A stretch of 64,000 nucleotides of DNA from contig NZ_CP059165.1 in NCBI RefSeq assembly GCF_013466425.1, positions 2,914,001-2,978,000 on the forward strand, given 5' to 3'. Position 1 is the stretch's first letter. Each line of letters begins with the position of its first letter. The position numbers were made by a program, and so were the translations under genes. Shown one piece after another: positions 27,148-45,100 of this stretch. Below the pieces are notes generated by a model, which did no database searches, was not told where the DNA came from, and saw nothing but the letters and a program-made list of their open reading frames with translations. Origin of the DNA: Mycobacterium vicinigordonae (GTDB lineage Bacteria; Actinomycetota; Actinomycetes; Mycobacteriales; Mycobacteriaceae).

Positions 27148-28209
27148 ATGAGCGTCATCGCAGGTGTCTTCGGAGCCTTGCCGCCGCATCGGTACTCGCA
27201 GCATCAGCTGACCGACACGTTCGTCAACATCCCGGAATTCGAGGGCTACGAGGACATCGTCCGGCAATTGCACGCCAGCGCTAAGGTCAATAGCCGGCAC
27301 CTGGTGTTGCCGTTGGAGAAGTACCCAAGCCTCAACGATTTCGGCGAGGCGAATTCAATTTTCATCGAAAAAGCTGTGGATCTGGGTGTCGAGGCCCTGA
27401 TGGGTGCGCTCGAAGAGGGCGGGCTGGCACCTGAAGACCTCGATGTGCTGATCACCACCACGGTCACCGGGCTGGCAGTTCCGTCGCTCGACGCCCGGAT
27501 AGCCGGGCGGGTGGGTCTGCGGCCCGATGTGCGACGGGTGCCGCTGTTCGGGTTGGGATGCGTGGCCGGGGCGGCTGGCGTGGCCCGGTTGCACGACTAC
27601 CTCAAGGGTGCGCCAGACGATATCGCCGCGCTGGTTTCGGTGGAGCTTTGCTCGCTGACGTTCCCCGGCTATAAACCGTCGGTTGCGGGTCTAGTGGGTA
27701 GTGCGTTGTTTGCTGATGGCGCGGCGGCGGTCGTCGCGGTCGGCGACCGCCGCGCCGAACAGGTTGCGGTAAGCGGCCCGTTGATTCTCGATTCCCGCAG
27801 CACCCTCTATCCCGACTCGCTGCGCACCATGGGTTACGACGTCGGCTCAGCTGGGTTTGAACTCGTGCTGTCCAAGGATCTGGCCGCTGTCGTCGAGCAG
27901 TACCTGGGCAACGATGTCAACTCGTTCCTCGGCGAACACCGGTTGAAGACCACCGATATCGGTGCCTGGGTGACGCACCCGGGTGGGCCCAAGATCATCA
28001 ACGCGATTACCGAGACGTTGGGTCTGCCGCCCGAGGCGCTGGAGCTGACGTGGCGCTCGCTGAGCGAAATCGGCAACCTGTCGTCGGCGTCGGTGCTGCA
28101 CGTACTGCGGGACACCCTCGCCAAACCACCCCCCAGCGGCAGCCCCGGTCTGATGATTGCGATGGGCCCGGGTTTCTGCTCCGAACTGGTGCTGTTGCGG
28201 TGGCACTGA
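27148..28209 (+). CDS. pks10: Type III polyketide synthase (chalcone/stilbene synthase-like) Pks10
   Basis: 353 residues from ATG 27148, after AAAGGGGTGGG. Thiolase-fold homodimeric synthase acting directly on acyl-CoA or carrier-bound starters. The Cys-His-Asn triad is visible: C138 in G-L-G-C-V-A-G-A-A-G, H277 in W-V-T-H-P-G-G-P-K, and N310 in E-I-G-N-L-S-S-A-S-V. Related mycobacterial enzymes extend acyl starters with malonyl or methylmalonyl units and cyclise to alpha-pyrones; in M. tuberculosis pks10 has also been linked to dimycocerosate (DIM) lipid production. About 30 bases separate it from pks7. Confidence 0.93.
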   Translation: MSVIAGVFGALPPHRYSQHQLTDTFVNIPEFEGYEDIVRQLHASAKVNSRHLVLPLEKYPSLNDFGEANSIFIEKAVDLGVEALMGALEEGGLAPEDLDVLITTTVTGLAVPSLDARIAGRVGLRPDVRRVPLFGLGCVAGAAGVARLHDYLKGAPDDIAALVSVELCSLTFPGYKPSVAGLVGSALFADGAAAVVAVGDRRAEQVAVSGPLILDSRSTLYPDSLRTMGYDVGSAGFELVLSKDLAAVVEQYLGNDVNSFLGEHRLKTTDIGAWVTHPGGPKIINAITETLGLPPEALELTWRSLSEIGNLSSASVLHVLRDTLAKPPPSGSPGLMIAMGPGFCSELVLLRWH

Positions 28210-28239
28210 ACGGGTGACCGCTTCGATGGCTAGTACGGT

Positions 28240-43975: not shown

Positions 43976-44038
43976 CTGAGTTTTGGGGAGTCAGAGCGGG
44001 CGGACTTGACTCGGTATCCAACTGATTGAGGCAGGTGC

Positions 44039-45100
44039 ATGAGCGTCGTCGCAGGTGTATTCGGTGCATTGCCACCACACCGATACAGCCAGAGTGAGGT
44101 CACCGATTTATTCGTTGAGTTCCCCGGTTTGAAGGAGCACGAAGAAATCGTCCGGAAGCTGCATAAGTCGGCCAAGGTGAACGGGCGCCACTTCGTCATG
44201 CCGTTGGAGCAGTATCCGGCGCTCACCGACTTCGGGGACGCCAACGAGATTTTCATCGACAAGGCGGTCGACCTCGGCATCGAGGCGCTCATGGGCGCGC
44301 TCAACGAAGCGGGCCTGCAACCAGAGGACATTGACCTCATAATGACCACGACGGTGACCGGTGTCGCGGTTCCGTCGCTGGACGCCAGAATCGCCGGCCG
44401 CTTGGGGCTGCGTCCCGACGTGCGGCGGATGCCGATATTCGGCCTGGGCTGCGTAGCTGGGGCGGCCGGTGTCGGTCGCCTGCACGACTATTTGCGCGGT
44501 GCCCCCGATGATGTGGCTGTCTTGATATCGGTCGAGCTCTGCTCGCTCACTTACCCGGCGATCAAACCGACGGTGTCGGGGCTGATCGGCACCGCGCTGT
44601 TCGGTGACGGCGCTGCAGCGGTGGTCGCGGTCGGTGATCGGCGGGCCGAGAAGATCCAGGCCAGCGGACCCGAGATCGTAGACTCCCGCAGTCGCTTCTA
44701 CCCCGAATCGCTGCACATCATGGGATGGGACGTCAGCTCGGCTGGTCTGCAGTTGCGGCTCTCGCCCGATTTGACGGAGCTGATCGAGCAATACCTGGCG
44801 GCAGACGTGGACGGCTTCCTCGACGCGCACGACCTGAGCAGGGATGACATTGCGGCCTGGGTGAGTCATCCGGGTGGTCCGAAGGTGATCAACGCGATCA
44901 CGGACACTCTGCAGCTGCCTCCCGAGGCTCTGGAGTTGACGTGGCGTTCCCTGGGCGATATCGGCAACCTGTCGTCGTCGTCGGTGCTGCACATCCTGCG
45001 AGACACCATCGAGAAGCGCCCGCCCAGCGGCACCCCCGGTTTGATGCTGGCAATGGGTCCGGGTTTTTGTGCCGAACTCGTGCTATTGCGCTGGCGTTAG
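44039..45100 (+). CDS. pks11: Type III polyketide synthase Pks11
   Basis: 353 residues, close paralogue of Pks10 (same length, same N-terminal pattern, roughly three residues in four shared by eye). Active-site Cys138 in G-L-G-C-V-A-G-A-A-G, with the His in W-V-S-H-P-G-G-P-K and the Asn in D-I-G-N-L-S-S-S-S-V. The M. tuberculosis enzyme has been reported to make methyl-branched alkylpyrones from acyl-CoA and methylmalonyl/malonyl-CoA. The 3' end overlaps the 3' end of cyp139 on the other strand by 18 bases. Confidence 0.93.
   Translation: MSVVAGVFGALPPHRYSQSEVTDLFVEFPGLKEHEEIVRKLHKSAKVNGRHFVMPLEQYPALTDFGDANEIFIDKAVDLGIEALMGALNEAGLQPEDIDLIMTTTVTGVAVPSLDARIAGRLGLRPDVRRMPIFGLGCVAGAAGVGRLHDYLRGAPDDVAVLISVELCSLTYPAIKPTVSGLIGTALFGDGAAAVVAVGDRRAEKIQASGPEIVDSRSRFYPESLHIMGWDVSSAGLQLRLSPDLTELIEQYLAADVDGFLDAHDLSRDDIAAWVSHPGGPKVINAITDTLQLPPEALELTWRSLGDIGNLSSSSVLHILRDTIEKRPPSGTPGLMLAMGPGFCAELVLLRWR

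What the first reader, a model, noticed from the sequence alone, without database searches (positions are those of the whole stretch)
27148..45100. Hybrid type I / type III assembly line predicted to make branched short-chain alkylpyrones
Loading module Pks9 (acetyl), Pks7 (methylmalonyl-type AT, fully reducing) and Pks8 (malonyl-type AT, fully reducing) have docking ends but no thioesterase; two type III synthases flank them. If colinear Pks9-Pks7-Pks8, the chain would be a 4-methylhexanoyl thioester, a natural starter for Pks10/Pks11 to turn into a methyl-branched pyrone. Direct ACP-to-type III handover would be unusual.
Basis: inference. Interest (0 to 1): 0.8.

Follow-up and report, generated by a model that had tools for sequence, protein, structure and literature searches.

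The report
Mycobacterial lipid assembly line, order decoded
A known but unexplained cluster of five mycobacterial polyketide enzymes looks like a short assembly line, three large enzymes acting in a decodable order to build a single-branched fatty chain that two small enzymes probably finish as a ring-ended lipid.

Summary
The window carries intact pks10-pks7-pks8-pks9-pks11. Pks9 is a KSQ-AT-ACP loading module; Pks7 is a methylmalonyl-type and Pks8 a malonyl-type module with all reducing domains; no thioesterase. Catalytic residues are kept in 67-74 aligned orthologues. The cluster is published (the '2x type III pks cluster').

New here is the order Pks9 -> Pks7 -> Pks8. (1) Pks9 tail/Pks7 head and Pks7 tail/Pks8 head belong to two docking classes, which in other loci pair 15:0 and 0:19 (12 more unresolved). 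(2) Two lineages lost pks9; their Pks7 heads are the two worst of 54 held out, one deleted, while their Pks8 heads are normal. So the chain is acetyl + one methylated C2 + plain C2.

Unsettled: chain length and hand-over. Pks8 keeps a tail (65 of 71) of the class that fits its own head, the only such head found in the genome, so Pks8 may pass chains between copies and build a long anteiso chain, which fits the long starters reported for Pks11 better than 4-methylhexanoyl. In two genomes lacking the locus's type I genes Pks10 is gone but Pks11 stays. Transfer from carrier protein to type III is untested.

The parts
27139..28209 (+). pks10, type III PKS (probable start ATG 27148); Tyr233 (27835-27837) at the product-length position
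   Evidence: Tyr 51 or Phe 17 of 68 aligned Pks10
28240..34542 (+). pks7, Docking-KS-AT(methylmalonyl-type)-DH-ER-KR-ACP module
   Evidence: catalytic motifs in 67 sequences
28240..28341 (+). Pks7 N-terminal docking head (ALRxSLKENERLKREN class, same class as the heads of two bimodular Pks12-like proteins of this genome)
   Evidence: alignment A1
30490..30501 (+). Pks7 AT YASH motif (methylmalonyl-type)
   Evidence: 67 of 67
34492..34539 (+). Pks7 C-terminal docking helix (ASESQLFAILDEELGS)
34546..40854 (+). pks8, Docking-KS-AT(malonyl-type)-DH-ER-KR-ACP module, one unbroken frame
   Evidence: catalytic motifs in 71 sequences
34546..34656 (+). Pks8 N-terminal docking head (DEBS/Lsd14 class)
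   Evidence: alignment A2; Lsd14 and DEBS matches; only such head found in the genome (64 of 100 candidates scored)
36784..36795 (+). Pks8 AT HAFH motif (malonyl-type)
   Evidence: 71 of 71
40807..40851 (+). Pks8 C-terminal docking-type helix (LDSEIYALLDDELGP), same class as the Pks7 tail
40808..43897 (+). pks9, KSQ-AT(malonyl-type)-ACP loading module; start codon uncertain
41303..41305 (+). Pks9 Gln codon in place of the KS active-site Cys (KSQ)
   Evidence: Gln in 74 of 74
42911..42922 (+). Pks9 AT HAFH motif (malonyl-type)
   Evidence: 74 of 74
43634..43894 (+). Pks9 C-terminal docking tail (IPxxELRRTGLLxKL...IDSLSPxALIAMxL), same class as the Pks12-like tails
   Evidence: alignment A3
44039..45100 (+). 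pks11, type III PKS; Trp230 (44726-44728) at the product-length position
   Evidence: Trp in 81 of 82
45083..46402 (-). cytochrome P450 (CYP139 by position, as in PMC6600245), possible tailoring enzyme
   Evidence: PF00067; a P450 match within the stretch in 51 of 79 fetched loci

Best explanation
A modular type I line ending in type III synthases. (1) Pks9 loads malonyl and decarboxylates it to acetyl-ACP. (2) Its tail docks on the Pks7 head; Pks7 adds one methylmalonyl unit, fully reduced, giving 2-methylbutyryl. (3) The Pks7 tail docks on the Pks8 head; Pks8 adds malonyl, fully reduced, giving 4-methylhexanoyl, and may pass the chain on to further Pks8 copies (its own tail fits its own head) to make longer anteiso chains. 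(4) With no thioesterase, a type III synthase unloads the chain: Pks10, which tracks with the type I genes, as a triketide alkylpyrone, and possibly Pks11 as a tetraketide resorcinol-type product. (5) The P450 may oxidise it. Order and units (1-3) are supported by sequence evidence; the activities, chain length, step 4 and step 5 are inferred.
For: Loader: Gln at the KS active site 74/74, other KS residues kept, AT HAFH 74/74, ACP Ser 74/74; top solved match a GfsA KSQ chimera. Units and reduction: YASH 67/67 (Pks7), HAFH 71/71 (Pks8); DH His and Asp, ER glycines and KR Tyr kept in all of these. Modular rather than Mas-like: KS-AT scores 1008 (Pks7, Lsd14) and 1006 bits (Pks8, DEBS) against 649 and 557 to Mas. 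Order: docking classes separate 15:0 and 0:19 in other loci, Fisher p = 5.4e-10 on the resolved ones. Natural losses: G357 and G324 lack pks9, two changes on a quick Pks8 tree; their Pks7 heads are the two lowest of 54 held out (-0.3 and 50.8 bits; next 63.0, median 78.4), their Pks8 heads score 81.0 and 81.3. Outside: Pks7 and Pks8 are the two PKSs of one blue-native band in BCG (PMC3032701 passages); pks8/17 is linked to monomethyl-branched acids (Dubey 2003, title and citing sentences seen), a branch that a malonyl-type Pks8 would not add by itself. Type III step: no thioesterase; no Pks10 orthologue in G161 and G261, which have pks11 but no type I gene at the locus; G188 keeps pks10 next to pks7 but has no pks11 at the locus.
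Against: No metabolite is tied to the whole line here. No docking head was matched in Pks10 or Pks11, so the hand-over has no visible guide. Pks11 persists without the locus's type I genes in G161 and G261. Pks10 is whole in L042 and L020, where pks7 is split over several frames (L042: pks8 too), so its tie to the line is loose or these breaks are recent or sequencing faults. Published assays used long acyl-CoAs. Two lineages keep the rest without pks9, so another primer must be possible. Pks8's tail is altered in 6 of 71, the window's nearest relative among them. Part of the Pks9 tail is missing in L080 and L082 though their Pks7 heads are normal. The Gly of the DH HxxxG motif is kept in only 54 of 67 Pks7, and is Ala in the window's Pks8, so full dehydration is not certain.
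Confidence: 0.55

Rival explanations
1. Two independent pathways that happen to be neighbours: Pks9-7-8 make a branched acyl chain for a cell-envelope lipid (trehalose ester or sulfolipid), and Pks10/Pks11 make pyrones or resorcinols from ordinary long-chain acyl-CoAs.
For: Pks11 stands without the locus's type I genes in G161 and G261; pks10 is whole in L042 and L020 where pks7 is split; Pks11 and M. marinum orthologues use long acyl-CoAs in vitro (PMC6274091, PMC5916927 passages); PMC6469627 cites pks8/17 products as minor parts of sulfolipids and acyltrehaloses.
Against: The five-gene order is conserved (64 of 79 loci); the window has no other gene between the five; no Pks10 orthologue in G161 and G261, while G188 keeps pks10 beside pks7 without pks11 at the locus.
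Confidence: 0.3
2. Single-pass short-chain line: 4-methylhexanoyl goes to Pks10/Pks11 and gives short methyl-branched alkylpyrones. (This is one end of the best explanation, so the odds overlap.)
For: Units and order as above; the Pks8 tail is altered in 6 of 71, all in the window's wider clade, so a single pass is possible there; Pks11/Pks18 accept starters from C6 up (PMC6274091 passage).
Against: The Pks8 tail helix is kept in 65 of 71, the window included, with no other partner head found in the genome; assayed starters are mostly long; pks8/17 was linked to longer monomethyl acids (C16-C20 is recalled, only the title and citing sentences were seen).
Confidence: 0.25
3. Mas-like iterative enzymes: Pks7 and Pks8 each extend long acyl-CoAs, and Pks9 is marginal.
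For: The literature calls them Mas-like (title of Rousseau 2003 in reference lists); G357 and G324 keep both without Pks9.
Against: Far closer to DEBS/Lsd14 than to Mas; both have docking heads and tails that are well conserved; the Pks7 head is lost or decayed just where Pks9 is gone.
Confidence: 0.1

Closest known systems
'2x type III pks cluster' MMAR_2470-2474 of Mycobacterium marinum (Parvez 2018, PMC5916927) and pks10-pks7-pks8-pks17-pks9-pks11 of M. tuberculosis (PMC6600245)
   Same: Same genes, order, flanking P450 and ABC gene; same Trp/Tyr split between Pks11 and Pks10.
   Different: The passages and the Discussion section that I read propose no type I order, loader chemistry or type I to type III hand-over; in the window pks8 is one unbroken frame (the pks8/pks17 split is from the papers' gene lists and titles).
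ars operon of Azotobacter (ArsA to ArsB/ArsC; PMC6274091 passage)
   Same: A carrier-protein enzyme with two type III synthases, one pyrone-type and one resorcinol-type, that can take acyl-ACP directly.
   Different: ArsA is a fatty acid synthase; here the feeder is a modular line with a KSQ loader and docking domains.
Cylindrocyclophane-type hybrid type I/III PKS of cyanobacteria (CylI; PMC8086630 passages)
   Same: A type I line ends in a type III synthase; CylI is the nearest solved relative of the window's Pks11 after Pks11 itself.
   Different: Other phylum, other tailoring genes (cylC, cylK types).
Pks12 modularly iterative synthase (mycoketide)
   Same: Self-compatible head and tail; the two bimodular Pks12-like proteins of this genome have a head of Pks7 class and a tail of Pks9 class.
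   Different: Pks8 would use the other docking class, is a single module and adds malonyl only.

Membership tests
2x type III pks cluster (Parvez 2018) | Three type I genes flanked by two type III genes, P450 and ABC gene downstream | tested here: met
   definition from PMC5916927 passages
2x type III pks cluster (Parvez 2018) | Trp in the Pks11-type, Tyr in the Pks10-type at position 230 | tested here: met
   window W230 and Y233; W 81/82, Y 51 and F 17 of 68
KSQ decarboxylating loading module | Gln for the KS active-site Cys with other KS residues kept | tested here: met
   74/74
KSQ decarboxylating loading module | AT and ACP on the same chain, no N-terminal docking head | tested here: met
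   Pfam; the Pks9 N-termini printed; exception G139, whose Pks9 has no AT match
KSQ decarboxylating loading module | Decarboxylation of malonyl-ACP | not testable with these tools
   needs purified enzyme
Modular (DEBS-type) assembly line | Matching docking head/tail classes between successive proteins | tested here: met
Modular (DEBS-type) assembly line | Terminal thioesterase | tested here: not met
   no TE match in Pks7, Pks8 or Pks9
Mas-like iterative synthase | Closest kin to Mas in KS-AT | tested here: not met
   649 and 557 bits to Mas against 1008 and 1006 to Lsd14/DEBS
Hybrid type I to type III system (Ars, Cyl) | Type III gene clustered with a TE-less type I line | tested here: met
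Hybrid type I to type III system (Ars, Cyl) | Acyl transfer from type I ACP to type III cysteine | not testable with these tools
   needs in vitro assay
Pks12-like modular iteration (for Pks8) | Head and tail of one compatible class on one protein, no other partner | tested here: inconclusive
   class fits and it is the only such head found in G000 (64 of 100 candidates scored, all 85 candidates scored), but the tail is altered in 6 of 71

The most novel reading that the evidence does not exclude
Pks8 is a self-docking, single-module repeater: after one methyl-bearing step by Pks7 it hands the chain from copy to copy and builds a long anteiso fatty chain wholly outside the fatty acid synthases, which Pks10 takes directly from the Pks8 carrier protein. 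This would explain why a malonyl-specific enzyme was genetically linked to monomethyl-branched acids and why the type III partners accept long starters.
Probability: 0.25. Interest if true: 0.8.

Novelty: new variant of a known kind. Interest (0 to 1): 0.6.

Why it matters
The cluster's loader is found in about a quarter of the sampled mycobacterial species (99 of 396) and has an M. tuberculosis counterpart, yet I found no product of the whole cluster in the passages read. An ordered line gives an exact prediction (one methyl branch, anteiso, even number of further carbons) that mass spectrometry can check, recasts 'Mas-like' Pks7 and Pks8 as modular enzymes, and offers an actinobacterial case of a modular type I line feeding type III synthases; [quoted passage not shown]

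Tried and rejected
Mas-like iteration as the main reading: rejected on KS-AT kinship. Order Pks9-Pks8-Pks7: rejected because the docking classes do not match. 'Pks11 depends on the type I enzymes': rejected, it stands without them at the locus in G161 and G261; G161 does hold a Pks8-like protein elsewhere (66%), a paralogue that G357 has besides its own Pks8. G261's other type III gene is no Pks10 orthologue (68% to both Pks10 and Pks11). Reading the downstream ABC gene as an exporter: its best curated matches are ABC-F proteins. The genome-contig scan gave 17 loci: 8 mycobacterial, 1 Acidimicrobiaceae MAG, 8 off-target Bartonella; it did not name the window's species. PDB search with the Pks9 tail profile gave nothing useful. 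In one search two Pks8 heads (L060, L066) scored near zero by a parsing fault; one search shows them intact. In one search simple patterns missed many motifs; the aligned counts replace them. The wider search of 397 genomes of the order (E <= 1e-25) listed Pks9-like matches outside the genus at 49% identity or less, in other PKSs; they were not followed. Literature searches. One search (loading module + pks9 + tuberculosis) found no paper; (KSQ + mycobacteri + polyketide synthase) listed 12 of 16, none about this cluster by title. Most subscription papers are not held, so an earlier proposal cannot be excluded. Not read: Chopra 2008, Gokulan 2013, Dubey 2003 (not held), Anand 2015 (not looked up).
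Full report
WHAT IS THERE. The window lies in a single-contig mycobacterial genome of 6.27 Mb, too large for the tuberculosis complex (size recalled); no species name was obtained. After argH come pks10, pks7, pks8, pks9 and pks11 on +, then a P450 and an ABC gene on -. Pfam gives Pks7 and Pks8 the same make-up, Docking-KS-AT-DH-ER-KR-ACP, and Pks9 KS-AT-ACP; no thioesterase is matched. Pks9 overlaps the end of pks8 and its start codon is uncertain; none of the Pks9 N-termini printed shows a docking head.

IT IS A KNOWN CLUSTER. Parvez 2018 (PMC5916927; passages and the Discussion section read) describes it in M. marinum as the '2x type III pks cluster' and assayed the two type III enzymes with palmitoyl-CoA. 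Syed 2019 (PMC6600245; abstract and passages) reports 796 of 824 clustered CYP139 genes in T3PKS-T1PKS clusters. In my sample 99 of 396 congeneric genomes (own included) have a Pks9 C-terminal match at E <= 2.2e-39 (counted from the listing; 163 at E <= 1e-15, many of them other PKSs); some real but weaker orthologues (L080, L082, L083) fall below. I fetched 80 stretches; L084 proved to be another PKS locus. Of the other 79, 64 show pks10-7-8-9-11 uninterrupted and 51 hold a P450 match within the stretch.

CATALYTIC RESIDUES. Aligned counts (near full-length sequences only, fragments dropped beforehand; the window is one row of each). Pks9, n=74: KS Gln 74, KS His and Lys/His 74, AT Ser 74, HAFH 74, ACP Ser 74. 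Pks7, n=67: KS Cys, YASH, DH His and Asp, ER glycines, KR Tyr, ACP Ser 67 each. Pks8, n=71: KS Cys, HAFH, DH His and Asp, ER glycines, KR Tyr, ACP Ser 71 each. Less clean: the Gly of the DH HxxxGxxxxP motif is kept in 54 of 67 Pks7 and 67 of 71 Pks8, and is Ala in the window's Pks8. By motif meaning (recalled) this reads malonyl-to-acetyl starter, one methylmalonyl and one malonyl extension, both reduced. The top solved match of Pks9 is a GfsA KSQ chimera (9iyw). KS-AT of Pks7 and Pks8 match Lsd14 and DEBS at 1008 and 1006 bits against 649 and 557 for Mas, so 'Mas-like' is not apt.

ORDER FROM DOCKING CLASSES. Profiles were made of Pks7 heads (A1), Pks8 heads (A2), Pks9 tails (A3) and Pks7 tails (A4) from 11-13 sequences each. 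A2 matches the heads of Lsd14 and DEBS, and A4 the Lsd14 tail. As an outside test, A1 and A2 were searched in 118 genomes of the class and the tail of the gene just upstream of each head was scored; loci were given for 28 A1 matches and for 30 of the A2 matches listed. Of the 28, 3 are this cluster, 4 belong to bimodular-size proteins of 4158-4209 aa (Pks12-like) and 2 have no PKS end upstream (judged by eye); of the remaining 19, 15 have an A3-type tail (5 bits or more), 0 an A4-type tail, 4 are unresolved, one of which (L138) leans the other way (0.7 against 4.0 bits). One of the 15 (L137) is another mycobacterial PKS. Of the 30, 3 are this cluster; of the remaining 27, 19 have an A4-type tail, 0 an A3-type tail, 8 unresolved. 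Fisher p = 5.4e-10 on the resolved ones. In this family Pks9 tails score A3 over A4 in 74 of 74 and Pks7 tails A4 over A3 in 67 of 67 (12-13 rows of each built the profiles). Hence Pks9 -> Pks7 -> Pks8. The same genome has two PKSs of 4170 and 4209 aa with a Pks7-class head and a Pks9-like tail (the first has two of each domain). I take them for Pks12 (recalled; no model names them). The mycoketide synthase is described as modularly iterative through its docking domains (passage in PMC2661021), which would support the pairing of that class.

ORDER FROM NATURAL LOSSES. G357 (L103) and G324 (L105) keep pks10, pks7, pks8 and pks11 but have no pks9 at the locus. Genome-wide the best matches to the Pks9 KS-AT are Pks8 itself (51-52%) and, in G357, a 4189-aa protein (50%). 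The two losses are separate on a quick Pks8 tree (two changes, no bootstrap). Scored with A1, the 54 Pks7 heads not used to build it rank L103 lowest (-0.3 bits, the head is deleted) and L105 second lowest (50.8), then 63.0, median 78.4; the chance that two named genomes are the two lowest of 54 is 1 in 1431. Their Pks8 heads score 81.0 and 81.3. So the Pks7 head seems constrained only while Pks9 is present. Not all fits: in L080 and L082 part of the Pks9 tail is missing though the Pks7 head is normal.

OUTSIDE SUPPORT. Pks7 and Pks8 were the two polyketide synthases of one blue-native band of BCG membranes (PMC3032701 passages). The pks8+pks17 gene was linked to monomethyl-branched unsaturated fatty acids (Dubey 2003; title and citing sentences seen). 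Pks8's AT is malonyl-type in 71 of 71, so the branch should come from another enzyme; Pks7, methylmalonyl-type in 67 of 67 and docked upstream, would supply exactly one. The reported unsaturation is not explained by an intact ER motif.

CHAIN LENGTH. Yet the Pks8 tail is of A4 class in 71 of 71 (A4 was built from Pks7 tails only), its terminal helix is more conserved than the 20 columns before it (0.79 against 0.56), and the only A2 head found in the window's genome is Pks8's own (which scored 64 of 100 candidates, which scored all 85 candidates, finds only the Pks7 and Pks8 heads over the Pfam cut-off). Repeated use of Pks8 by self-docking would give long anteiso chains. Against it: the helix is lost or altered in 6 of 71 (L005, the nearest relative, and L006, L008, L009, L010, L081), two events on the tree.

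THE TYPE III STEP. Among solved structures Pks11 is closest to Pks11 of M. tuberculosis (4jao), then to CylI. The residue pattern that PMC5916927 ties to triketide-only (Pks10) and tetraketide-capable (Pks11) products is kept: Tyr 51 or Phe 17 of 68 Pks10, Trp in 81 of 82 Pks11. Phyletic pattern: G161 and G261 have pks11 at the argH locus with no type I gene of this cluster there and no Pks10 orthologue in the genome; G161 has a Pks8-like paralogue elsewhere (66%). G188 has pks10 next to pks7 on one contig, pks8 on another and pks9 on a third, where the P450 follows pks9 directly with no pks11. This suggests that Pks10 belongs to the type I line and Pks11 has a second, independent role. It rests on three genomes, and against it pks10 is whole in L042 and L020 although pks7 (in L042 also pks8) is split over several frames. 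Precedents: ArsA to ArsB/ArsC (PMC6274091 passage); cyanobacterial hybrid lines (PMC8086630 passages).

VERDICT. Observation confirmed; order and building units well supported; short-chain pyrone product and direct hand-over possible but unproven. A new variant of a known kind (hybrid type I/type III line), in an already described cluster.

Noticed in passing
46372-48147 (-): The downstream 'ABC transporter' gene matches ABC-F family models best (EttA, Uup, ribosomal-protection type; none over its cut-off), so the exporter label used in papers is doubtful.
   Followed up: partly
L103 (G357), L105 (G324): Clusters without pks9; what primes Pks7 there is unknown.
   Followed up: partly
L106 (G139) 5257-7521: Pks9 with KS and ACP matches but no AT match.
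   Followed up: partly
L011 (G064) 10133-13896: Two extra genes between pks8 and pks9: an FAD oxidoreductase and an 830-aa protein with a class I/II aminotransferase domain, a possible alternative off-loading enzyme.
   Followed up: partly
L064/L110 (G230), between pks8 and pks9: A 5-kb insert of unidentified content; the two reading frames on - that were scanned gave no Pfam match.
   Followed up: partly
L083 (G076) 7005-13418: Only one reducing module, interrupted by two in-frame stops, between pks10 and pks9.
   Followed up: no
G357:C1:4054508-4057204 and G161:C1:1768088-1770805: A Pks8-like paralogue (66%) elsewhere in two genomes, open frame about 2110 aa, matching from Pks8 residue 4-7 on, so probably with a docking head.
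   Followed up: no
33819-33896 (+): ARAGORN reports a tRNA-Ser inside the pks7 coding frame; probably a chance fold.
   Followed up: no
48174-51296 (+): Long protein matching PRK07868 over its cut-off (acyl-CoA synthetase, with a PhaC-like N-terminal part), just beyond the cluster.
   Followed up: no
11686-18390 (-): A 2234-aa open frame whose residues 111-223 match the N-terminal part of the LipY family model, below its cut-off; PE/PPE-like (recalled).
   Followed up: no
L003 (G000:C1:4924658-4925677) and L004 (G000:C1:2577760-2578614): Two further type III PKS genes in the genome, 57% and 28% to Pks10; the first has an FAD-binding protein downstream, perhaps the polyketide quinone cluster; the second may be pks18-like.
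   Followed up: partly
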